Source: Sulfurospirillum arcachonense DSM 9755 (GTDB lineage Bacteria > Campylobacterota > Campylobacteria > Campylobacterales > Sulfurospirillaceae). Taken from it: 64,000 nt of DNA. Both the position numbers and the translations under genes were made by a program. The notes below the pieces were generated by a model. That model worked only from the letters and a program-made list of their open reading frames with translations. It ran no database searches and was not told the origin of the DNA. The stretch is taken from positions 1 through 64,000 of the forward strand of contig NZ_JFBL01000008.1 in assembly GCF_000597725.1 (NCBI RefSeq), in the 5' to 3' direction. Shown piece after piece: positions 8,192 through 21,967 of this stretch. Every line of letters begins with the position of its first letter. Within the stretch, counting starts at the first letter, position 1.

Positions 8192-8872
8192 ATGAGTGTC
8201 AAACCTTCAAAAATTCTTTTCTTAGAAGATGATGTAAATCTGAACGAAACAGTAACTGAGTTTTTGCAAGAGAATGGTTATGTAGTTGATAGTGTGTATG
8301 ATGGCGATGAAGCAGAAGTAAAGATGTATGAAAACTCTTATGATTTGTTTTTGTTAGATGTAAATGTTCCTGGACTCAATGGATTTGAGCTTCTAAAAAA
8401 TTCTCGTGAAAATGAGAATAAAACTCCAGCGATATTTTTGACTTCACTCAATTCTATTGATGATGTAAGTGTTGGTTATGAGAGTGGTTGTGATGATTAT
8501 ATCCGTAAACCTTTTGAGCTTAAAGAGATACTTTTAAGAGTAAAAACACTTATAAAAAGGGAGTTTTTTCACTCTAAAGATGATAGTGTAAAAATTGCTA
8601 AAGATATAGAGTATCATACATCTACAAACTCTTTACATGTAGAAGGAAAAGAGGTGCAACTGCAAAATAAAGAAGCTATTTTACTTAAACTCTTTTTACA
8701 AAGAAGAGGAGAGATAATATCTCACAAAGTTATACTTGAAGAGCTTTGGGGATATGATGAGGTAGCGAGTGATGATGCGCTTAGAACATATATAAAAAAT
8801 TTGAGAAAAATTATAGGAAAAGAGAGAATTATCAGTGTTAAAAAGCTGGGATACAAATTTATTACAGAGTGA
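8192..8872 (+). CDS. OmpR-family response regulator
   Basis: This 226-residue regulator has an N-terminal receiver (acidic pair EDD near residue 12, phosphoacceptor Asp in FLLDVNVPG near residue 56, Lys in YIRKPFEL) and a C-terminal winged-helix DNA-binding domain (about residues 130-226, with LRTYIKNLRKIIG and KLGYKFI). It should act as a transcription factor switched by the overlapping histidine kinase. The kinase gene starts 38 bp before this gene ends, a very tight coupling. The same architecture recurs at 20452-21967. Confidence 0.92.
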   Translation: MSVKPSKILFLEDDVNLNETVTEFLQENGYVVDSVYDGDEAEVKMYENSYDLFLLDVNVPGLNGFELLKNSRENENKTPAIFLTSLNSIDDVSVGYESGCDDYIRKPFELKEILLRVKTLIKREFFHSKDDSVKIAKDIEYHTSTNSLHVEGKEVQLQNKEAILLKLFLQRRGEIISHKVILEELWGYDEVASDDALRTYIKNLRKIIGKERIISVKKLGYKFITE

Positions 8873-10016
8873 GAAAAAAACACTTTTTTCGTTTTTTATA
8901 CTCTATCTAATTTTTATTATACTTCTCTTATCTATACTTGGAGTTATGTATTATAATTTCCAAAAAGATTTGATGCTCCAAAAAAACAGATTAGAGCTTT
9001 CCTACTTAGCCAATGAGCAACTGTTAAAACTCAAAGATTTGCATGTAAATTTTGATAAAAATAGAGTATATCCTAGAGATGTGAGATTTAATTCTGCTAT
9101 TTATGATAGTTCTAAAAAAGAGATATTTTCTACATTTTCTAACAAACACATAGATTTTAACGAAGTTATTTACATGGATGAAGATAAAATATATCTCATA
9201 AAAGAGCCAGAATCTTATTATCTTGGTACAAAATATCTTGTTTTAGAAGTAAAGAGTGATAGTTCATGGCATAAAAATGTATACAAAACTCTTAGTATTT
9301 ATGGAGCAGGGTTATTTTTACTCATGGTAGTCTTTGGTTATTTTTTACTAAGACTTCTTTTAAAACCTATGCGTGAGGCAATAGAGCTTTTAGATAGATT
9401 TATAAAAGATACTACGCATGAGCTTAATACCCCAGTAAATGCTATCATGTCAAATATAGAGATGATAGATACAAATTCATTAGATGAAAAACTAGCAAAG
9501 AAGATAAAAAGAATAGATATAGGAGCAAGAACAGTTTCGAACTTGTACCAAGACTTGACCTATCTTACATTAGCACATAAGATCGTTTCAAATGATGAAG
9601 ATGTGAATTTACAAGAAGTTATAGAAGAGAGGATAGAGTACTTTACTCTTTTTGCACAATCAAGAAAAATAGATATAAATTGTGATTTAGAGGAAAACAT
9701 ATCTTTACATATAGATAGAAAAAAGATAACAAAACTTATAGATAATCTTCTATCAAACGCGGTTAAATACAATAAAATCAAAGGTACTATAAACATAAGG
9801 TTACAAGATGGATATTTTGAAGTACATGATAGCGGAAGAGGGATTGCTCAAGAAAAAATAGATGCAATGTTTGAGCGATACACAAGAGCAGATGAGAGTG
9901 TAGGAGGCTTTGGAATAGGGCTTAGTATAGTTCATATGATAGCAGAAGAATACACTTTACATGTAAAGATAACTTCAAAAGAAAAAAAGTGGACAAAGGT
10001 GAGGGTATCATGGTAA
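8835..10016 (+). CDS. Membrane sensor histidine kinase
   Basis: This 393-residue kinase has two membrane segments (about residues 18-40 and 155-176) that bracket a periplasmic sensor of about 115 residues of no recognised family. The dimerisation domain carries the phospho-His in THELNTPVNAI (about residue 195). The ATPase domain has DNLLSNAVKYN, DSGRGI and GGFGIGLSIV. The start is GTG 8835, inside the regulator gene; I see no better in-frame start before the first membrane segment. It is the partner of the overlapping OmpR-family regulator. A cytochrome c gene overlaps its 3' end, which may hint at a redox or respiratory stimulus. Confidence 0.88.
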   Translation: MLKSWDTNLLQSEKKTLFSFFILYLIFIILLLSILGVMYYNFQKDLMLQKNRLELSYLANEQLLKLKDLHVNFDKNRVYPRDVRFNSAIYDSSKKEIFSTFSNKHIDFNEVIYMDEDKIYLIKEPESYYLGTKYLVLEVKSDSSWHKNVYKTLSIYGAGLFLLMVVFGYFLLRLLLKPMREAIELLDRFIKDTTHELNTPVNAIMSNIEMIDTNSLDEKLAKKIKRIDIGARTVSNLYQDLTYLTLAHKIVSNDEDVNLQEVIEERIEYFTLFAQSRKIDINCDLEENISLHIDRKKITKLIDNLLSNAVKYNKIKGTINIRLQDGYFEVHDSGRGIAQEKIDAMFERYTRADESVGGFGIGLSIVHMIAEEYTLHVKITSKEKKWTKVRVSW

Positions 10017-11348: not shown

Positions 11349-11399
11349 TGATTTTTATCCTAAGTAAATAAATATTTACTAAATTAAGTTATTTGGTGG

Positions 11400-11405
11400 T
11401 ATTAT
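11400..11405 (+). promoter_or_regulatory. -10 box directly before the binding-protein gene
   Basis: TATTAT ends 7 nt before the ATG at 11413, and no Shine-Dalgarno sequence fits in between. Transcription would begin at or within a few bases of the start codon, so the mRNA is predicted to be leaderless or nearly so. Confidence 0.45.
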
Positions 11406-11412
11406 AGCATTT

Positions 11413-12573
11413 ATGTATAGAATTTTATCAGCTTTGATTGTTTCAATAATTTTTATTTTACCATTTGTTAATTTTGACTCCTATTATAACGATACAGAGA
11501 TACGATTAGGTATGAGTGGACCCTTTAGTGGTAGTCTTCATACTATTGCTGATGAACTTATGTTAGGTATTAATGCGTATTTTAATAATATCAATGAGCA
11601 AGGTGGAGTGTACGGTAGAACTTTTAAAGTAATTACAAAAGATGATAAGTATGAGCCTAAAATTACAGCAGAAAATGCAGAAGAACTCATAAAAAAAGAT
11701 AAAGTATTTGCTTTTTTAGGTTTTATAGGAACGCCTACAAGTAGAGTTGCTTTACCCATTGCTATAAAATACAAAACTCCTTATATAGGAGCATTTACTG
11801 GAGCAGAATTTTTAAGAGAGCTTCCAAGAAATCCTTTTGTTTTAAATGGAAGAACGAGTTATAGAAAAGAGATTGAAGCACTTGTGAATTATTTTGTAGA
11901 TAAAGAAAAATATACTAATATCGCTGTTTTTTATCAAAATGATAGTTATGGACGCTCCGGATTAAAAGGAGTAAAAGAGGCTCTTAGCAAAAGAAATATG
12001 AGTTTAGTTGCAGAAGCAAGCTATAAAAGAAATACCCTCTCCGTTGGACATGCTCTTTACGAAATATCTCAAAGTAACGCGCAAGTAGTTATTATGGTTG
12101 GAGCCACAAAACCTACCGCAGAATTTATAAAAAGAGCAAGGCAAAATCCAAAACTTAAAAATATTCATTATGGAGCAATCTCGTTTATTGGTTCAAGTAT
12201 GTTACTTAATGCTTTAGATAAACATGTAGAAAATATAGTGTTTTCTCAAGTAGTACCCTCCCCATGGGGAGGGTTATCTAGTGAAGTAAATTTATATAGA
12301 AAACTTATGGACAAATATTATCCTAATAGAGAGTACAGTTATGTATCTTTAGAAGGATTTTTTATCGCAAAAATGACTACAGAGTTATTTAAAAGAGTTG
12401 GTCCTCATTTTACAAAAGAAGACTATATTGATCAGATGCGGTTTTTATATAGAGAAATAAAAAATAATCAAGATGTAGATGAAAGTAGAAGGGTTTGTAA
12501 ATGTTTAAATAATGTATATTTGACGACATATTCAGATGGTATTTTTTGGGATGTAGATGAAGAAGATAATTAA
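11413..12573 (+). CDS. Periplasmic binding protein of the branched-chain amino acid/urea/amide type, probable sensor
   Basis: This 386-residue type I periplasmic binding protein (LivK/UrtA/AmiC-like) has an uncleaved-looking hydrophobic N-terminus. The family start IRLGMSGPFSGS follows, then GINAYFNNINEQGGVYGRTF, FLGFIGTPTS and a C-terminal lobe. No permease or ATPase gene is nearby. The next gene is a membrane histidine kinase that overlaps by 17 bp, so the protein probably presents its ligand to the kinase and not to a transporter. Two Cys near the C-terminus (RVCKCLNN) are unusual. The ligand is unknown; the glnK-amtB and arginase neighbours suggest a nitrogen compound. Confidence 0.82.
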   Translation: MYRILSALIVSIIFILPFVNFDSYYNDTEIRLGMSGPFSGSLHTIADELMLGINAYFNNINEQGGVYGRTFKVITKDDKYEPKITAENAEELIKKDKVFAFLGFIGTPTSRVALPIAIKYKTPYIGAFTGAEFLRELPRNPFVLNGRTSYRKEIEALVNYFVDKEKYTNIAVFYQNDSYGRSGLKGVKEALSKRNMSLVAEASYKRNTLSVGHALYEISQSNAQVVIMVGATKPTAEFIKRARQNPKLKNIHYGAISFIGSSMLLNALDKHVENIVFSQVVPSPWGGLSSEVNLYRKLMDKYYPNREYSYVSLEGFFIAKMTTELFKRVGPHFTKEDYIDQMRFLYREIKNNQDVDESRRVCKCLNNVYLTTYSDGIFWDVDEEDN

Positions 12574-14191
12574 TCCTTTTAAGGACTTTATGGGCAATAT
12601 CAATAACATGACAATAGCTAAAAAAACTAGTTTATTGTTTTTTATTATGGTAGTTGGGATGCTTTTTATTGGAAGTTTTGCACATATGAGTTTAAATAGA
12701 ATAAAAGGTGATTTTGATATTCTTTATACCAAAAGAATGGTACCTGTTATCAAACTTGAAAAAATAAAAGATATTTATACTGTTAATATACTTGATACTT
12801 TAAGGGATGTAGAAAACAGTCAGATAAGTGTGAAAGATGGAAAAAGTATTATAGTTCTTGCTCAAGAGCTTATAAGACGAGATTGGAGTGAATATAAAAC
12901 AAGTTTAAAAATTCATGATAAAGATTGGGTATCTGAGATATTAGAATCATGGGGAATTATAAGTCCCAAAAAAACTAACACCATAAAAACTTTAGAAGAT
13001 GATATGGTTTTAATAATTGAAAAAAAAGTTAACAATATTGACACGATTTTAGATGATATATTTAAACTGTTTAGTAGGGCTCACACAGCAGATGCGTATA
13101 ATCGTCTGCAAGAGGAGTTATATCCAAGTATTAATTCCATAAATATTCATTTAACACAATTAATAAGTTTAAATTTAGAAGCTGCAAATAGTGGTAAAAA
13201 GAGAACAAGAGCAGTATATGATAATACTTTTGAATGGATAGTTGTAGCAACGGTTGGAACTATAACTGTGGCAGCTCTTTTGGCAATTGTGATTTTACAA
13301 AATATTAGACTTTTACATGCAGAACTTGCAAGAATTGTGGATATAAAAACAAAAGAACTTCAAAAACTCAATAAAAATTTGGAAAAGAAAATTGCATATG
13401 AAGTTGAACAAAGTCGTCAAAAAGATCAAATTATGTTTAGGCAGTCAAGACTTGCAGCTATGGGTGAGATGGTAGGAAATATTGCACATCAATGGAGGCA
13501 ACCGTTAAATGCGATAGTTCTTATTATTCAAAGTTTTCAAATGAAAAATATGGTTGGTAAGTTGGATGATGCATTTATTGATAAACAAGTTGATGAAGGG
13601 ATAAAACAAGCAACATCGATGTCAAAGACTATAGATGATTTTAGAAATTTTTTTAATCCAAATAAGAGAGCAGAAGATTTTAGTGTAAAAAAAACAATTG
13701 AAGAATCTATGGATTTAGTAAAGTTTTATTATGAAAAGGCAAATATTAAGATGCGTTTGTCATGTGAAAAAGATTTTGAGACGTTAGGGTATCCTAATGA
13801 ATTTTCACAAGTAATGATGAACCTTTTTTCAAACTCAAAAGATGCTTTAGAATCAAAAGAAAATCAAAATAAGTATATTGAAATTATTGTCAAAGTTGAT
13901 GAGGTAAATAAAAAAGGAAACATTTCAATTATAGACAATGGTGGAGGAATTCCCATAGAAGTTATAGATAGAATGTTTGAGCCATATTTTACTACGAAAC
14001 ATCAAAGTAGTGGTACTGGAATTGGCTTATACATGTCAAAAGAGATTATAGAAAAACAGATGCACGGAAATATTGAAGTACAAAACATTGCTTATACATT
14101 TAATAATAATGATTATTATAAGAAATGTGCTTGTATCAATATTGTAATGCCAATAAGTGGGCTTGATAAAGATAAGTGTAAAAAAGAATAA
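12557..14191 (+). CDS. Sensor histidine kinase with four-helix-bundle-like periplasmic domain
   Basis: This 544-residue kinase has membrane segments near residues 25-48 and 222-246 around a helical periplasmic domain resembling the chemoreceptor four-helix bundle. A coiled coil follows, then the dimerisation domain with AHQWRQPLNAI (His near residue 311, a form common in Campylobacterota). The ATPase domain has MNLFSNSKDAL, DNGGGIP and GTGIGLYMS. The start ATG 12557 lies inside the binding-protein gene. ATG 12590, preceded by AAGGA, is a reasonable alternative and would remove only 11 residues. It should receive input from the upstream binding protein and pass phosphate to the regulator at 14206. 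Confidence 0.88.
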   Translation: MKKIINPFKDFMGNINNMTIAKKTSLLFFIMVVGMLFIGSFAHMSLNRIKGDFDILYTKRMVPVIKLEKIKDIYTVNILDTLRDVENSQISVKDGKSIIVLAQELIRRDWSEYKTSLKIHDKDWVSEILESWGIISPKKTNTIKTLEDDMVLIIEKKVNNIDTILDDIFKLFSRAHTADAYNRLQEELYPSINSINIHLTQLISLNLEAANSGKKRTRAVYDNTFEWIVVATVGTITVAALLAIVILQNIRLLHAELARIVDIKTKELQKLNKNLEKKIAYEVEQSRQKDQIMFRQSRLAAMGEMVGNIAHQWRQPLNAIVLIIQSFQMKNMVGKLDDAFIDKQVDEGIKQATSMSKTIDDFRNFFNPNKRAEDFSVKKTIEESMDLVKFYYEKANIKMRLSCEKDFETLGYPNEFSQVMMNLFSNSKDALESKENQNKYIEIIVKVDEVNKKGNISIIDNGGGIPIEVIDRMFEPYFTTKHQSSGTGIGLYMSKEIIEKQMHGNIEVQNIAYTFNNNDYYKKCACINIVMPISGLDKDKCKKE

Positions 14192-14205
14192 TAAAAAGGA
14201 AAAAT

Positions 14206-14868
14206 ATGGATTTGAATTGCTTAAAAGATTGCGTAATTTTATATGTAGAAGATGAGCAAAGTATACAAAGTCAAACAAAAATGATATTAGATGATTTTGT
14301 AAAAGAGGTCATAGTTGCAAGTGATGGTGAAGAAGGACTTAAAATTGCGCTTGAAACTGATATTGATATCATAGTAACGGATATTATGATGCCACATTTA
14401 AATGGTATTGATATGCTTAAAATTTTGAGAAATGAGCATAAAAAAGATATTCCAGCTATTATTACCACTGCTTTTACAGAGACCGATTATTTACTAGAAG
14501 CTATTAAATTAAAAGTAGATGGGTTTATAACGAAACCTATTAATATTAAAGATTTAATTAATACGATATATACAGTAATGTTACCAAAAGTACAAAAAGA
14601 AGAATTAGAAGGTTGCTCATATATGGTTGATGCTTTATCAATTTTAGTTGGTGGTAAAAAGATCGAGATACTAAAATATATTATTGATCATATTGATAAA
14701 GAACATATTTTTTATGGTTCATATCAGGATATAATGGATAATATACAAGTTAGTAAACCAACAGTTGTTAATATGTTTAAACAACTCATTCAAGCAGGAA
14801 TTTTAGAAAAAATAAAAAACAAAATGTACCGTTTTCAAAATACAAAATTTATAAAAGATGAAGGATAA
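14206..14868 (+). CDS. Response regulator with atypical C-terminal helix-turn-helix
   Basis: This 220-residue protein has a receiver domain (EDE near residue 18, Asp in VTDIMMPHLNG near 58, Lys in ITKPINI). Its C-terminal part is not the OmpR winged helix. Instead YQDIMDNIQVSKPTVVNMFK (about 170-190), followed by LIQAGILEKIKNKMYRF, reads like a MarR/RepL-style winged helix. AAAGGA precedes the ATG, 14 bp after the kinase stop. It should be the transcriptional output of the binding-protein/kinase system; targets such as glnK-amtB are inference. Confidence 0.85.
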   Translation: MDLNCLKDCVILYVEDEQSIQSQTKMILDDFVKEVIVASDGEEGLKIALETDIDIIVTDIMMPHLNGIDMLKILRNEHKKDIPAIITTAFTETDYLLEAIKLKVDGFITKPINIKDLINTIYTVMLPKVQKEELEGCSYMVDALSILVGGKKIEILKYIIDHIDKEHIFYGSYQDIMDNIQVSKPTVVNMFKQLIQAGILEKIKNKMYRFQNTKFIKDEG

Positions 14869-14876
14869 TTATAGAA

Positions 14877-15401
14877 ATGAAAAAAATAGTATTTTTACTC
14901 ATATTGAGTTTATCAACATTTGTATTCGCAGCAGACAAAAATGTAGTTTTTGAAACAAGCCAAGGAAATATAGAGTTGAAATTATTTCCAAAAATTGCTC
15001 CTAAAACTGTAGAAAACTTTGTAGGTTTAGTCAAGAAAGGTTACTATAATGGGACAATTTTCCATAGGGTAATTCAAGATTTTATGATTCAAGGTGGAGA
15101 CCCAACGGGAACAGGAAGAGGTGGAGAATCTATTTGGGGTCACTCTTTTGAAGATGAGTTTAAACCAGGAATTGTTTTTGATAGACCAGGTCTTCTCGCT
15201 ATGGCCAATGCTGGTAGAAATACAAATGGAAGCCAATTTTTTATAACAACAATACCTACTAGATGGTTAAATGGGAAACATACTATTTTTGGTGAAGTTG
15301 TTGAAGGTTATGATACAGTAGCAAAAATTGAAAATACAAATGTTGATGGTAGAGACAAACCAATCGTTCCTGTGAAGATTATAAAAGCTTATGTTAAATG
15401 A
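14877..15401 (+). CDS. Periplasmic cyclophilin-type peptidyl-prolyl isomerase
   Basis: This isomerase catalyses cis-trans isomerisation of X-Pro bonds. A signal peptide (MKKIVFLLILSLSTFVFAA) sends the 174-residue enzyme to the periplasm. Cyclophilin motifs are clear: FHRVIQDFMIQGGDPTGTG (catalytic Arg in FHR), NTNGSQFFIT and the HTIFGEV segment; the usual Trp position reads RWLNGKHTIFG. It starts 8 bp after the regulator stop, so it may share that transcript. It could help fold exported proteins such as the binding protein upstream. Confidence 0.9.
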   Translation: MKKIVFLLILSLSTFVFAADKNVVFETSQGNIELKLFPKIAPKTVENFVGLVKKGYYNGTIFHRVIQDFMIQGGDPTGTGRGGESIWGHSFEDEFKPGIVFDRPGLLAMANAGRNTNGSQFFITTIPTRWLNGKHTIFGEVVEGYDTVAKIENTNVDGRDKPIVPVKIIKAYVK

Positions 15402-15437: not shown

Positions 15438-15818
<381 letters not shown>

Positions 15819-15968: not shown

Positions 15969-17150
15969 ATGCAAGCTACAGAATTACAATACGTAATTGA
16001 CACTTTTTTCCTTATTTTTTCAGCAGTACTTATTATCTTCATGGCACCAGGTTTCTCTATGCTTGAAGCTGGACTTGTTAGAACAAAAAATGTAACAGCA
16101 GTACTTACAGGGAACGTTTTACTTTATGCAGTATGTTCATTTGTTTTTCTTCTTTGGGGATACAATTTAATGTTTGGTGGAAGTGGATTTTTTCTCAATG
16201 GAGTAGAAGTTACAGGATATAGTGCTTATGCATTTTTCTTTTTTCAAATGGCTTTTGTAAGTAAAACAGTATCTATTATGAGTGGTGGTGTAAGTGAGAG
16301 AATTAAAATTGTCCCTTTCATGAGCTTTGCAATTTTAATGAGCGGATTTATTTATCCGCTTGTAGGAAATTGGATTTGGGCTGGAGGGTTTTTAAGTGAT
16401 GTTCATGACTTAGCTGGTTCTACTGTTATTCACTCTGTTGGAGGATGGGCTTTATTGGCTGCAATATTAGTATTAGGTGCTAGAAAAGGTAAATATACTA
16501 AAGATGGCAAAATTCGTCCAATCCCAGCATCAAATATACCATTAGTTACACTTGGTGGTCTTCTTTTATGGATAGGATGGTTTGGTTTTAATGGTGGAAG
16601 TGCTTTTAATATCTCTACTAAAGATGCTGCAGATTTAGTTGGATTGATTATATTAAATACAAATACAGCAGGACTCGCTGGTGCTATTGTAGCAACTCTT
16701 ATTGTTTATTTTCAGTATAAAAAATTAGATATCACAATGATTCTTAATGGCGCACTTGGTGGACTTGTAGCTATCACTGCAGGTGCAGATGTTGTTGGTT
16801 TGTGGGAGCCAATTGTAATTGGTGCTATTGGTGGAGCTTTAGTTGTTTACGCTGTTCCATTTTTTGATAAGTTTAAAATTGATGATCCTGTTGGTGCTCT
16901 TTCTGTTCACTTGGTAAATGGTATTTGGGGAACTATTGCAGTTGCTTTATTTGCTGATTTTTCACTTTTAGCACAATTAAAAGGTATTGTTGTAGTGGGA
17001 TTATTTACTTTTACAATTTCACTTATTATATTTGTAGTTATTAAAAAAGCTATTGGACTTAGAAGTGATGAAGAACATGAATACGAAGGACTTGATTTAG
17101 AAGAGTGTGGTGTTGAAGCCTACCCTGAATTTGTAAAATCAAAAGTCTAA
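15969..17150 (+). CDS. amtB: Ammonium transporter AmtB
   Basis: This 393-residue ammonium channel has eleven predicted membrane segments. The twin-His pore is visible as STVIHSVGGWALL and GALSVHLVNGIWG. FGGSGF-like and PLVGNWIWAGGFL segments also fit the family. The C-terminal cytosolic tail (DEEHEYEGLDLEECGVEAY) has the conserved GLDLxxxGxxAY motif that interacts with PII. There is no signal peptide in front. AAAGG precedes the ATG. It lies 150 bp after glnK in the common glnK-amtB order. Confidence 0.95.
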   Translation: MQATELQYVIDTFFLIFSAVLIIFMAPGFSMLEAGLVRTKNVTAVLTGNVLLYAVCSFVFLLWGYNLMFGGSGFFLNGVEVTGYSAYAFFFFQMAFVSKTVSIMSGGVSERIKIVPFMSFAILMSGFIYPLVGNWIWAGGFLSDVHDLAGSTVIHSVGGWALLAAILVLGARKGKYTKDGKIRPIPASNIPLVTLGGLLLWIGWFGFNGGSAFNISTKDAADLVGLIILNTNTAGLAGAIVATLIVYFQYKKLDITMILNGALGGLVAITAGADVVGLWEPIVIGAIGGALVVYAVPFFDKFKIDDPVGALSVHLVNGIWGTIAVALFADFSLLAQLKGIVVVGLFTFTISLIIFVVIKKAIGLRSDEEHEYEGLDLEECGVEAYPEFVKSKV

Positions 17151-19468: not shown

Positions 19469-20470
19469 ATGACTATAACCATAAAAGCACCATTAGATAT
19501 GCATCTTCACTTAAGAGATGCAGAGATGTTAAAAGTAGTAGCACCATTGAGTGCACAAACGTTTTCAAATGCTATTATTATGCCAAATCTTGTACCACCA
19601 GTTACAACAATAGAAGCTTTAAAAGAGTACAAACAAAGAATTATGAGTGCTATAGGAAATGAAAAGTTTGAACCTCTTATGACACTTTTTTTTCGCAATG
19701 ATTATACGTATGATTTTTTAAAAGAGGCAAAAAAGTATATAAGTGCTATAAAATTATACCCTTCAGGAGCAACTACAAACTCTGAAGGTGGTGTAACAAG
19801 CATGGATATAGAGAGTCTAAGAGAGACTTTTGAGGCGATGAGTGAACTTGAAATTCCACTTTGTGTTCATGGAGAAACTAATGGTTTTGTTATGGATAGA
19901 GAGGCTGAATTTGGCTCAGTATATGAGCAATTTGCTTCAAATTTCCCTAAATTAAAAATTATCATGGAACATATTACTACAAAAAATAGTGTTGATTTAC
20001 TCGAAAAATATGACAATCTTTATGCAACAATTACACTACAACATCTTTTTATTACTTTAGATGATGTAGCAGGTGGTATGCTTAAACCTCACCTTTTTTG
20101 TAAACCAATAGCAAAACGATATGAAGATAGAGAAGCCCTTTTAAAAGTAGCTTTGAGTGGGCATCCTAAAGTTATGTTTGGAAGTGACTCAGCTCCTCAC
20201 CCAACGCATAAAAAAGAGTGTTGTGGATGTGCTGCTGGGGTTTTTACAGCACCAATTGCACTTCAAGCATTGGCTGGGCTTTTTGAGAAAAATAATGTCC
20301 TAGAAAATTTACAATCTTTTGTTAGCAATAATGCACAGAAAATTTATAGTTTTAAACCACTTGAAAAAAATATAGTTTTAGAAAAAACACCATTTAAAGT
20401 TCCAAATAGTTATGGTGATGTAGTGCCGATGTTTGCAGGAGAGGAGCTAGCTTGGTCTATAAAGTTTTAG
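19469..20470 (+). CDS. pyrC: Dihydroorotase
   Basis: This zinc enzyme interconverts carbamoyl-aspartate and dihydroorotate in pyrimidine synthesis. The 333-residue product has the N-terminal metal motif DMHLHLRD, the metal-bridging Lys in [14 protein letters not shown], His in CVHGE and EHITT, and GSDSAPH near the C-terminus. Size and motifs fit the short class II PyrC type. AAAGGG precedes the ATG. Its 3' end overlaps the following response-regulator gene by 19 bp, an unusual coupling of a biosynthetic gene to signalling genes. Confidence 0.95.
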
Positions 20471-21117
20471 TATTAGAGGATAATGAACTTCTTTTAGAAA
20501 CATATGAAGATTTTTTGAGTCAATATGGCTGTGAAGTTATTTTGGCAAAAAATATAGAAATAGCATATGAAATATGTTTTGAAAATAGATTTGATATATA
20601 TCTTATTGATGTTAAATTACCAACAAGTAATGGATTTGAGTTTTTAAGATCGTTACGGGACTCAGGAGATAAAACACCTGCTATTTTTATAACCTCTTTT
20701 ACAGATAAGCAGAGTTTATTAGAAGGGTTTAAAAGTGGGGCAGATGATTATATAAAAAAACCATTTGATTTAGATGAATTATGGTTTAGAATAGAAGCAA
20801 TTATATCAAGAGATAGAGGATATAACGATAGAGTAATGGTCATCAATGATGAGTATTCTTTGAATGTAGATAGAAAAAATCTCACATGTAATGGAAATGA
20901 AGTTTTGATAAATTTAAAAGATTTTGAACTTCTTCATCTTCTTTTAACAAATCGTACACAAGTAGTAACTAAAGAGATGATAGAAGAAAAACTATGGTGT
21001 ACAAACGATAACTCAAATAGTGGTTCAATAAGAGTGTATGTAAATAATTTGAAAAAAATTTTAGGAAAAGATTCTATATCAAATATAAGAGGGATTGGTT
21101 ATAGACTTGAAATCTAG
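20452..21117 (+). CDS. OmpR-family response regulator
   Basis: This 221-residue regulator has a receiver (LEDNELL, Asp in [12 protein letters not shown] near residue 53, Lys in YIKKPFDL) and an OmpR winged-helix domain with [14 protein letters not shown] and GIGYRLEI. Its TTG start at 20452 is supported by GGAGAGGAGC just upstream, inside pyrC. It resembles the regulator at 8192 in size and layout. The cognate kinase gene overlaps its 3' end by 23 bp. Confidence 0.9.
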
Positions 21118-21967
21118 TGAAAAACGTTTACTTATATTAGCGACGATAAGTGTTTGTAGTATTTCATTTGTACTATTTATTGCTCTGTTTTTAGTAAATT
21201 TTTCTGCTATGTTACCATTAGTAAAGGTTGCTTTTTTTTGTCTTTTTTTTATAATTTTTATTTTTAGCATATATATGACTATACACTATTTACTTTCTCC
21301 TATGTTTAAAACTAATTATCTTTTAGAATTATTGCTTAAAGATACTCTTCATGAGTTAAATATCCCTTTATCAGTTATAAAAGCAAACTTGCAAATGTTA
21401 AGGATGAATGAAAAAGACAGCAAAAAGTTAAAACGACTAGATAGGGTAGGATTGGCTTGTGTTGATTTAGATAGACTGTATAAAGATATGGATTATTATA
21501 TAAAACGAGAAGTAAGATATGATTTGAAAGAAAATTTTGATGTTAAAGATGTCATTGAAGAAGTCAAAGAAAAAGTAGAAGCACAAGGGCTACATGTAAA
21601 GATTGAGTCAAGTGTAGAATCTTTACATGTAAATGCAGATAAACATGGTTTTATAAAAGCTATAGGAAATCTTGTAGATAATGCAATAAAATATAATAAA
21701 AATGGAAAAAGTATTAATTTGTCATTAAAAAATGGTAAACTAAACATAGAAGATCAAGGTATAGGAATGGATGAGTCTGAAATATTTAGAGTTTTTGATA
21801 GATATTATCAGAGTGATGATTCAAAAAAAGGTGTAGGAATAGGACTTAATATAGTGAAAAATTATTGTGATGAATCTAAGATTTTTATAAATATTTTTTC
21901 AAAAAAAGGAAAAGGTACGAAAATTTCATTAGATTTAAAAAATATTTTGTTAGAGCAAAATCAATGA
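21095..21967 (+). CDS. Compact membrane histidine kinase
   Basis: This 290-residue kinase has two closely spaced membrane segments (about residues 13-37 and 43-66) and almost no periplasmic domain, so it probably senses within the membrane or through partners. The phospho-His is in LHELNIPLSVI (about residue 86). The ATPase domain has GNLVDNAIKYN, EDQGIGMDE and KGVGIGLNIV. The start is TTG 21095 or TTG 21107; both are inside the regulator gene and I cannot separate them. A 4-bp ATGA overlap couples it to the PilZ gene. Confidence 0.85.
   Translation: MVIDLKSSEKRLLILATISVCSISFVLFIALFLVNFSAMLPLVKVAFFCLFFIIFIFSIYMTIHYLLSPMFKTNYLLELLLKDTLHELNIPLSVIKANLQMLRMNEKDSKKLKRLDRVGLACVDLDRLYKDMDYYIKREVRYDLKENFDVKDVIEEVKEKVEAQGLHVKIESSVESLHVNADKHGFIKAIGNLVDNAIKYNKNGKSINLSLKNGKLNIEDQGIGMDESEIFRVFDRYYQSDDSKKGVGIGLNIVKNYCDESKIFINIFSKKGKGTKISLDLKNILLEQNQ

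What the first reader, a model, noticed from the sequence alone, without database searches (positions are those of the whole stretch)
11413..14868. Binding protein + histidine kinase + atypical regulator next to glnK-amtB
A LivK/UrtA-type periplasmic binding protein overlaps a membrane kinase by 17 bp, followed by a receiver fused to a MarR/RepL-like winged helix in place of the usual OmpR or NarL output domain. No permease or ATPase is nearby. The likely logic is that a captured amide, urea or amino acid is reported to the kinase. The neighbours are glnK-amtB and arginase/ornithine cyclodeaminase, which suggests nitrogen-source sensing.
Basis: partly seen in the sequence, partly recalled or inferred. 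Interest (0 to 1): 0.6.

Follow-up and report, generated by a model that had tools for sequence, protein, structure and literature searches.

The report
Binding-protein-fed two-component sensor, ligand unknown
Three neighbouring genes look like a complete sensor that controls its own expression: a probably membrane-tethered periplasmic binding protein, a kinase and a DNA-binding regulator; it is conserved through one bacterial family and has a sister copy beside formate-dehydrogenase genes, but its suggested role in nitrogen sensing is not backed by the evidence found here.

Summary
In detail: window 11413-14868 encodes a Peripla_BP_6 binding protein (SBP), a histidine kinase with an all-helical periplasmic domain, and a receiver fused to a RepL-like winged helix. 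It is a conserved module: 38 of 44 family genomes carry it, beside glnK wherever contigs allow (34/34). New evidence: (1) A paralogous triad (type B) exists; in relatives it adjoins selenocysteine formate dehydrogenase. (2) Both types share an operator, RGTAAA-N6-TTTACY; in this genome its only intergenic exact copy (11363-11380) precedes the SBP gene, and none of 19 glnK upstream regions has one. (3) In a genome that lost only the SBP gene, the kinase's periplasmic domain alone diverged (30% versus 44-68% identity). (4) The SBPs lack AxA and lipobox motifs and the residues that hold alpha-amino groups in LivK; distant relatives often adjoin chemoreceptors. Best reading: a dedicated, autoregulated SBP-kinase-regulator system with unknown ligand. 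Nitrogen-source sensing is unproven: the glnK link is part of wider conserved gene order, glnK survives without the triad, and orthologous regulators elsewhere keep the cyclophilin neighbour more often than glnK. It is a known kind of system; I found no description of this variant in the open-access papers searched.

The parts
11363..11380 (+). Palindromic operator AGTAAATAAATATTTACT (AGTAAA-N6-TTTACT), predicted binding site of the regulator
   Evidence: Core GTAAA-N6-TTTAC exact in 13 of 22 SBP-A upstream regions (0.025 expected from dinucleotide shuffles), up to 1 mismatch in 20 of 22 (0.85 expected); same geometry upstream of SBP-B, 20 of 34 exact (0.025 expected). Only intergenic exact match to RGTAAAN6TTTACY in the own genome
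11400..11405 (+). Putative -10 element TATTAT of the triad promoter, 7 nt before the ATG
   Evidence: TATTAT conserved downstream of the operator in relatives; inference
11413..12573 (+). Signalling-type periplasmic binding protein (Peripla_BP_6, 386 aa), N-terminal helix 2-18 without cleavage motif, type-A-specific CxC (C362, C364)
12557..14191 (+). Histidine kinase (544 aa): TM1, helical periplasmic domain, TM2, HisKA with H311, HATPase_c
14206..14868 (+). Response regulator (220 aa): receiver with D59, RepL-like winged helix with conserved SKPT
14877..15401 (+). Cyclophilin-type peptidyl-prolyl isomerase, 8 bp after the regulator; deepest conserved neighbour
   Evidence: Pfam Pro_isomerase; next to the regulator in most family-f1 loci and 10 of 10 f7 loci
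15480..15818 (+). glnK (P-II), conserved neighbour; no operator upstream
   Evidence: NCBIfam P-II hits; linkage 34 of 34 resolvable genomes; operator 0 of 19
15969..17150 (+). amtB ammonium transporter, beside glnK in the window and many but not all relatives
   Evidence: NCBIfam amt above cut-off; not beside glnK in L042, L045, L055, L057, L059, L061

Best explanation
It is an SBP-dependent two-component system. The binding protein stays tethered in the inner membrane, captures a small ligand that is probably not an alpha-amino acid, and docks on the helical periplasmic domain of the kinase. The kinase phosphorylates the regulator, whose RepL-like winged helix binds AGTAAA-N6-TTTACT upstream of the SBP promoter and switches its own operon (probably activates it), with read-through into the cyclophilin gene and possibly glnK-amtB. 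Supported by computation here: architecture, conservation, paralogy, a conserved operator, the link between SBP loss and sensor-domain divergence. Inferred: tethering, docking, which protein binds the operator, activation, read-through. Unknown: the ligand.
For: Triad conserved in 38 of 44 genomes of five genera and duplicated as type B, SBP-HK-RR in the same order. No AxA or lipobox in 66 SBPs; AlphaFold model pLDDT 90 with an N-terminal helix 2-18 continuing to the domain. G116 lacks only the SBP gene and keeps HK-RR-glnK: its periplasmic domain is 30% identical to other type-A kinases (others 44-68%), while HisKA is 81%, TM1 74% and TM2 70%; D72, N77 and T81 changed, and D72 and N77 changed in no other kinase of the set. 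SBP distances track the kinase periplasmic domain beyond kinase core and regulator (partial r 0.60 in A, 0.56 in B; kinase core 0.36 and -0.02). Same operator geometry in A and B. Distant relatives on plasmids adjoin chemoreceptors in Thioclava, Ruegeria, Phaeobacter, Terrarubrum and Deinococcus, and a hybrid response-regulator protein in Burkholderia.
Against: No binding, phosphotransfer or complex was tested. The G116 case is one event. The periplasmic/SBP correlation can partly reflect shared constraint or different rates. An SBP next to a kinase gene need not activate it: in Pseudomonas aeruginosa no evidence was found that PA0602, PA4985 and AgtB activate AgtS or AruS (PMC11113362). Four of ten annotated plasmid relatives had no adjacent transducer and one lay beside an ABC permease and ATPase. 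The number of exact operator matches in the genome equals that of the reversed control pattern, so only conservation marks the site.
Confidence: 0.7

Rival explanations
1. Nitrogen-source sensor: the SBP binds an amide, urea or amino acid and the regulator controls glnK-amtB and nitrogen metabolism.
For: glnK lies within about 4 kb of the SBP in 34 of 34 resolvable genomes; two loci without the cyclophilin gene still have glnK next to the regulator (L008, L059); HK-RR-cyclophilin-glnK-amtB also occurs in family f7 (L134); read-through from the triad promoter cannot be excluded, and no terminator-like site was found on the + strand between regulator and glnK.
Against: No operator upstream of glnK in 19 genomes nor between 11381 and 37506 of the window at up to one mismatch. 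MT-cyclophilin-glnK remains without the triad in G301-G303. Upstream methyltransferase and downstream pyrC/RR2/HK2/PilZ are also often conserved neighbours, so general gene order may explain the link. Alpha-amino-binding residues of LBP (T102, Y202, E226) are G130, A/S231 and I/L/F256. Arginase/OCD found beside it only in the window and L042.
Confidence: 0.2
2. The kinase senses directly; the SBP is a passenger or only modulates it.
For: Orthologous regulators occur with kinases but no detected SBP in families f7, f14, f18 and in G116; the Pseudomonas precedent (PMC11113362).
Against: In those genomes the sensor domain is different, shortened or nearly absent (L125), which looks like exchange of inputs rather than independence of this domain from its SBP; type B repeats the triad in other families.
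Confidence: 0.12
3. Envelope or thiol-redox sensor: the type-A-specific CxC pair responds to periplasmic redox state or metal, and the cyclophilin is the relevant output.
For: CxC near the C terminus in 23 of 24 sequences labelled type A and 0 of 40 type B; the cyclophilin is the deepest conserved neighbour.
Against: CxC lies beside a low-confidence loop of the model (354-359); a ligand pocket of the Liv fold is retained; no cysteine in the f7 systems was examined.
Confidence: 0.1
4. An orphan transport SBP that works with an unlinked Liv permease.
For: Liv fold; two Liv permease sets are in the genome.
Against: Both Liv operons have their own SBPs; NCBIfam LivK and UrtA models score 43.6 and 37.7 bits against cut-offs of 477 and 492.75; no cleavage motif; triad conserved and duplicated with the kinase.
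Confidence: 0.06

Closest known systems
TorT-TorS-TorR (TMAO sensing; description from general knowledge, TorS model compared)
   Same: Type-I-fold binding protein, kinase with helical periplasmic domain and regulator encoded together; binding protein acts as co-receptor.
   Different: TorS is a hybrid phosphorelay kinase and TorR an OmpR-type regulator; here the kinase is simple, the output RepL-like, the SBP Peripla_BP_6. TorS model scores 46.6 bits vs cut-off 676.5.
LivK/UrtA/AmiC-type binding proteins (Peripla_BP_6 fold)
   Same: Same fold; LBP S79 corresponds to invariant T107 and Y150 to Y179; Foldseek hits include Liv proteins, a urea-binding protein and AmiC.
   Different: Alpha-amino-binding positions changed, no cleavage motif, no linked permease, linked to a kinase.
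4kv7 (Rhodopirellula baltica, unknown function) and plasmid SBPs beside chemoreceptors
   Same: Closest solved relative (E 1.6e-78 by profile, TM about 0.83), sharing DDxYEP, GTPT, QNDxYG and YxRNT motifs.
   Different: Function and ligand of 4kv7 not known to me; plasmid relatives pair with MCPs instead of a kinase.
Type B triad, same phylum
   Same: Same three proteins in the same order and the same operator geometry.
   Different: Beside formate dehydrogenase and often selA/selB instead of cyclophilin-glnK; SBP about 36-40% identical, no CxC, position 232 Tyr instead of Thr.

Membership tests
SBP-dependent two-component system (general kind) | SBP, kinase and regulator genes adjacent and conserved together | tested here: met
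SBP-dependent two-component system (general kind) | Kinase with a periplasmic domain able to take a protein ligand | tested here: met
   Two TM segments and a helical periplasmic domain of about 175 residues
SBP-dependent two-component system (general kind) | SBP physically binds and controls the kinase | not testable with these tools
   Only indirect: G116 and partial correlations; complex prediction not available
TorT-TorS-TorR | Hybrid kinase with TorS-level score and OmpR-type regulator | tested here: not met
   TorS 46.6 vs 676.5 bits; no Trans_reg_C in the regulator
Liv/Urt ABC-transport SBP (HAAT) | Curated LivK or UrtA model above cut-off | tested here: not met
   43.6 vs 477; 37.7 vs 492.75
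Liv/Urt ABC-transport SBP (HAAT) | Alpha-amino-group-binding residues of LBP (T102, Y202, E226) | tested here: not met
   G130, A/S231, I/L/F256 in the alignment; the C-terminal half is aligned at low identity
Liv/Urt ABC-transport SBP (HAAT) | Linked permease and ATPase | tested here: not met
   None beside the triad in the loci inspected
OmpR/PhoB or NarL response regulators | Trans_reg_C or GerE output domain | tested here: not met
   RepL above gathering score, no Trans_reg_C or GerE hit
NtrB-NtrC nitrogen regulators | NtrB model above cut-off and sigma-54 AAA+ regulator | tested here: not met
   NR(II) 53.3 vs 240 bits; regulator has no AAA+ domain

The most novel reading that the evidence does not exclude
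A lineage of Liv-fold binding proteins (DDxYEP...GTPT...QNDxYG...YxRNT) is dedicated to signalling and is reused as co-receptor for kinases, chemoreceptors and hybrid kinases. In Campylobacterota two sister copies with one operator code diverged: type B reads an extracellular formate- or selenium-related signal for formate dehydrogenase and selenocysteine genes, and type A reads another small ligand for its own operon with cyclophilin and glnK.
Probability: 0.3. Interest if true: 0.65.

Novelty: new variant of a known kind. Interest (0 to 1): 0.45.

Why it matters
How Campylobacterota regulate respiratory enzymes such as formate dehydrogenase, and nitrogen uptake, is poorly known: the 2019 review PMC6682613 names FdhTU for formate dehydrogenase in C. 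jejuni and no substrate-specific sensor in the passages I read, and the Arcobacter butzleri genome paper states that its two-component systems could not be assigned functions and that NtrB/NtrC homologues are absent (PMC2147049). The paired triads give two testable regulators with a predicted operator, and SBP loss in G116 points to D72, N77 and T81 of the kinase as candidate SBP-contact or signalling residues.

Tried and rejected
(1) glnK as the regulated gene: operator search upstream of glnK gave 0 of 19 at up to one mismatch. (2) A wider regulon: exact operator matches in the own genome and seven f1 genomes fall inside coding genes except those at the SBP promoter and one intergenic site in G283 (L156); in G258 (L144) the site falls in an over-long methyltransferase ORF call. 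The f7/f22 genomes gave mostly coding or scattered intergenic sites, no pattern. (4) SBP-kinase complex prediction: not possible, since the tool takes single unaltered proteins. (5) Pocket geometry: coordinates of the models are not readable, so the pocket was judged from sequence only. (6) Sequence search for a published account of this triad: none in seven searches of the open-access library; subscription papers are not held. (7) The SBP-signalling review (Matilla et al. 2021) is not held. (8) Consensus promoter scan gave fewer sigma-70 sites than shuffles and missed the TATTAT element.

Full report
What is there. The window lies in contig C8 of a 2.66 Mb genome; close relatives by record title are Sulfurospirillum and Sulfurospirillaceae. 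Kinase H311 and the surrounding HQWRQP motif and regulator D59, with K110 and the T88 region, are invariant in 43 and 35 aligned sequences, so both look catalytically intact. The kinase model is helical through the periplasmic part (mean pLDDT 81.5, pTM 0.45, so only secondary structure is used). The SBP model is good (pLDDT 90.4) and matches 4kv7 and 3lop best.

A paralogous triad. The own genome has one further full-length match to the regulator and one to the kinase sensor region, and both belong to a second triad on contig C26, SBP 40% identical, followed by selA. In the order-wide sample type A was seen only in family f1 and type B in f1 and several other families. Type B lies divergently from a formate dehydrogenase operon whose alpha subunit has an in-frame TGA at the expected selenocysteine context; 32 of 41 loci labelled B (five or so are outliers) have the fdh ferredoxin-like gene and 22 have selA. 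No A locus had fdh or sel genes and no B locus had glnK or amtB.

Conservation and the glnK link. In 44 genomes of the family, 38 have type A. Combining by hand, glnK is on the same contig within about 4 kb in 34, and the other four have the SBP and glnK on different contigs, mostly at contig ends. The divergent upstream methyltransferase and downstream pyrC, RR2, HK2 and PilZ are frequently conserved as well, so the link may be inherited gene order. In G301-G303 the triad is absent and methyltransferase-cyclophilin-glnK remain. The regulator tree groups type A with regulators from families f7 and f22 (support 0.986) apart from B (0.928); in f7 the order is kinase-regulator-cyclophilin, with glnK-amtB near in three of ten loci, no SBP detected and a different sensor domain; in f22 a divergent SBP (about 30%) is present without glnK. 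The regulator is therefore older and more conserved than its input.

Operator. Upstream regions show a palindrome AGTAAA-N6-TTTACT before SBP-A and GGTAAA-N6-TTTACC before SBP-B. With the common core GTAAA-N6-TTTAC the exact counts are 13 of 22 and 20 of 34 against 0.025 expected each; glnK 0 of 19. The pattern was chosen after looking at these sequences, so the expectation understates chance somewhat, but the excess is about 500-fold and the A and B sequences are independent regions. The gap from operator to the TATTAT element, read from the printed sequences (the script stopped at an earlier TGTTAT in a few), is 18-19 bp in the window genus and 29-31 bp elsewhere, about one helical turn apart, which fits binding on one face of the helix. 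In the own genome the three other exact RGTAAAN6TTTACY matches are inside genes. In type B genomes further sites precede selA, selD and a Tat-signal transglutaminase-like/MerT-like/MerP-like cluster (the names selD, MerT, MerP are my reading of the sequences, not a database result).

Why the SBP is thought to signal. (a) None of 66 SBPs (a few duplicates among them) has AxA or a lipobox in the N-terminal region, and all have a strongly hydrophobic N-terminal stretch; the LivK proteins of this genome start with conventional-looking signal peptides. (b) G116 lost the SBP gene cleanly, keeps kinase-regulator-glnK, and its kinase diverged in the periplasmic domain only, losing D72 and N77, which are unchanged in all other kinases of the set. 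(c) Partial distance correlations favour SBP with periplasmic domain over SBP with kinase core. (d) Six of ten annotated plasmid relatives from distinct genera lie beside chemoreceptors or a hybrid regulator protein. None of these is a binding experiment, and PMC11113362 is a warning that adjacency alone is not enough.

Ligand. Both own-genome LivK proteins keep an acidic residue at the E226 position. This argues against alpha-amino acids, not against amides, urea, amines or carboxylates. Position 232 (Thr in A, Tyr in B), 284 (Pro in A, Tyr in B) and the CxC pair suggest A and B bind different things.

Verdict. A real, conserved, autoregulated SBP-kinase-regulator system with a clear sister system; the nitrogen assignment rests on position alone.

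Noticed in passing
L010 1839-5346 (own genome C26) and type B loci L062-L101: Paralogous SBP-kinase-regulator triad beside formate dehydrogenase, selA/selB and, in several genomes, a selD-like gene, with operator GGTAAA-N6-TTTACC; candidate regulator of formate dehydrogenase and selenocysteine genes.
   Followed up: partly
L112 4922-8300 (G116): SBP gene absent between methyltransferase and kinase; kinase periplasmic domain diverged and regulator-glnK kept.
   Followed up: yes
L059 5981-7121 (G037): Type-A SBP split into two ORFs (146 and 222 aa) in a single-contig genome: frameshift or sequencing error.
   Followed up: no
L084 7985-10498 (G101): Type B kinase in two pieces, and a TGA inside the SBP match in the same genome: looks like a decaying copy.
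   Followed up: no
window 11400-11413: The putative -10 lies 7 nt before the SBP start codon, so the message may be leaderless in this genus.
   Followed up: no
SBP residues 362-364 (window 12496-12504): CxC motif in 23 of 24 type A SBPs and none of 40 type B.
   Followed up: partly
L099 9724-10866 (G253): A further SBP of this lineage followed by a 947-aa protein, a 170-aa ORF and a short receiver-like ORF: another possible signalling arrangement.
   Followed up: no
L075 (G132): A 946-aa uninterrupted formate dehydrogenase alpha homologue beside type B, with a second fdh start and operator about 5 kb on: possible Cys/Sec enzyme pair under one regulator.
   Followed up: no
window 8192-10016 and 20452-21967: Two more two-component pairs with OmpR-type regulators flank the region and are conserved neighbours in many relatives.
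   Followed up: no
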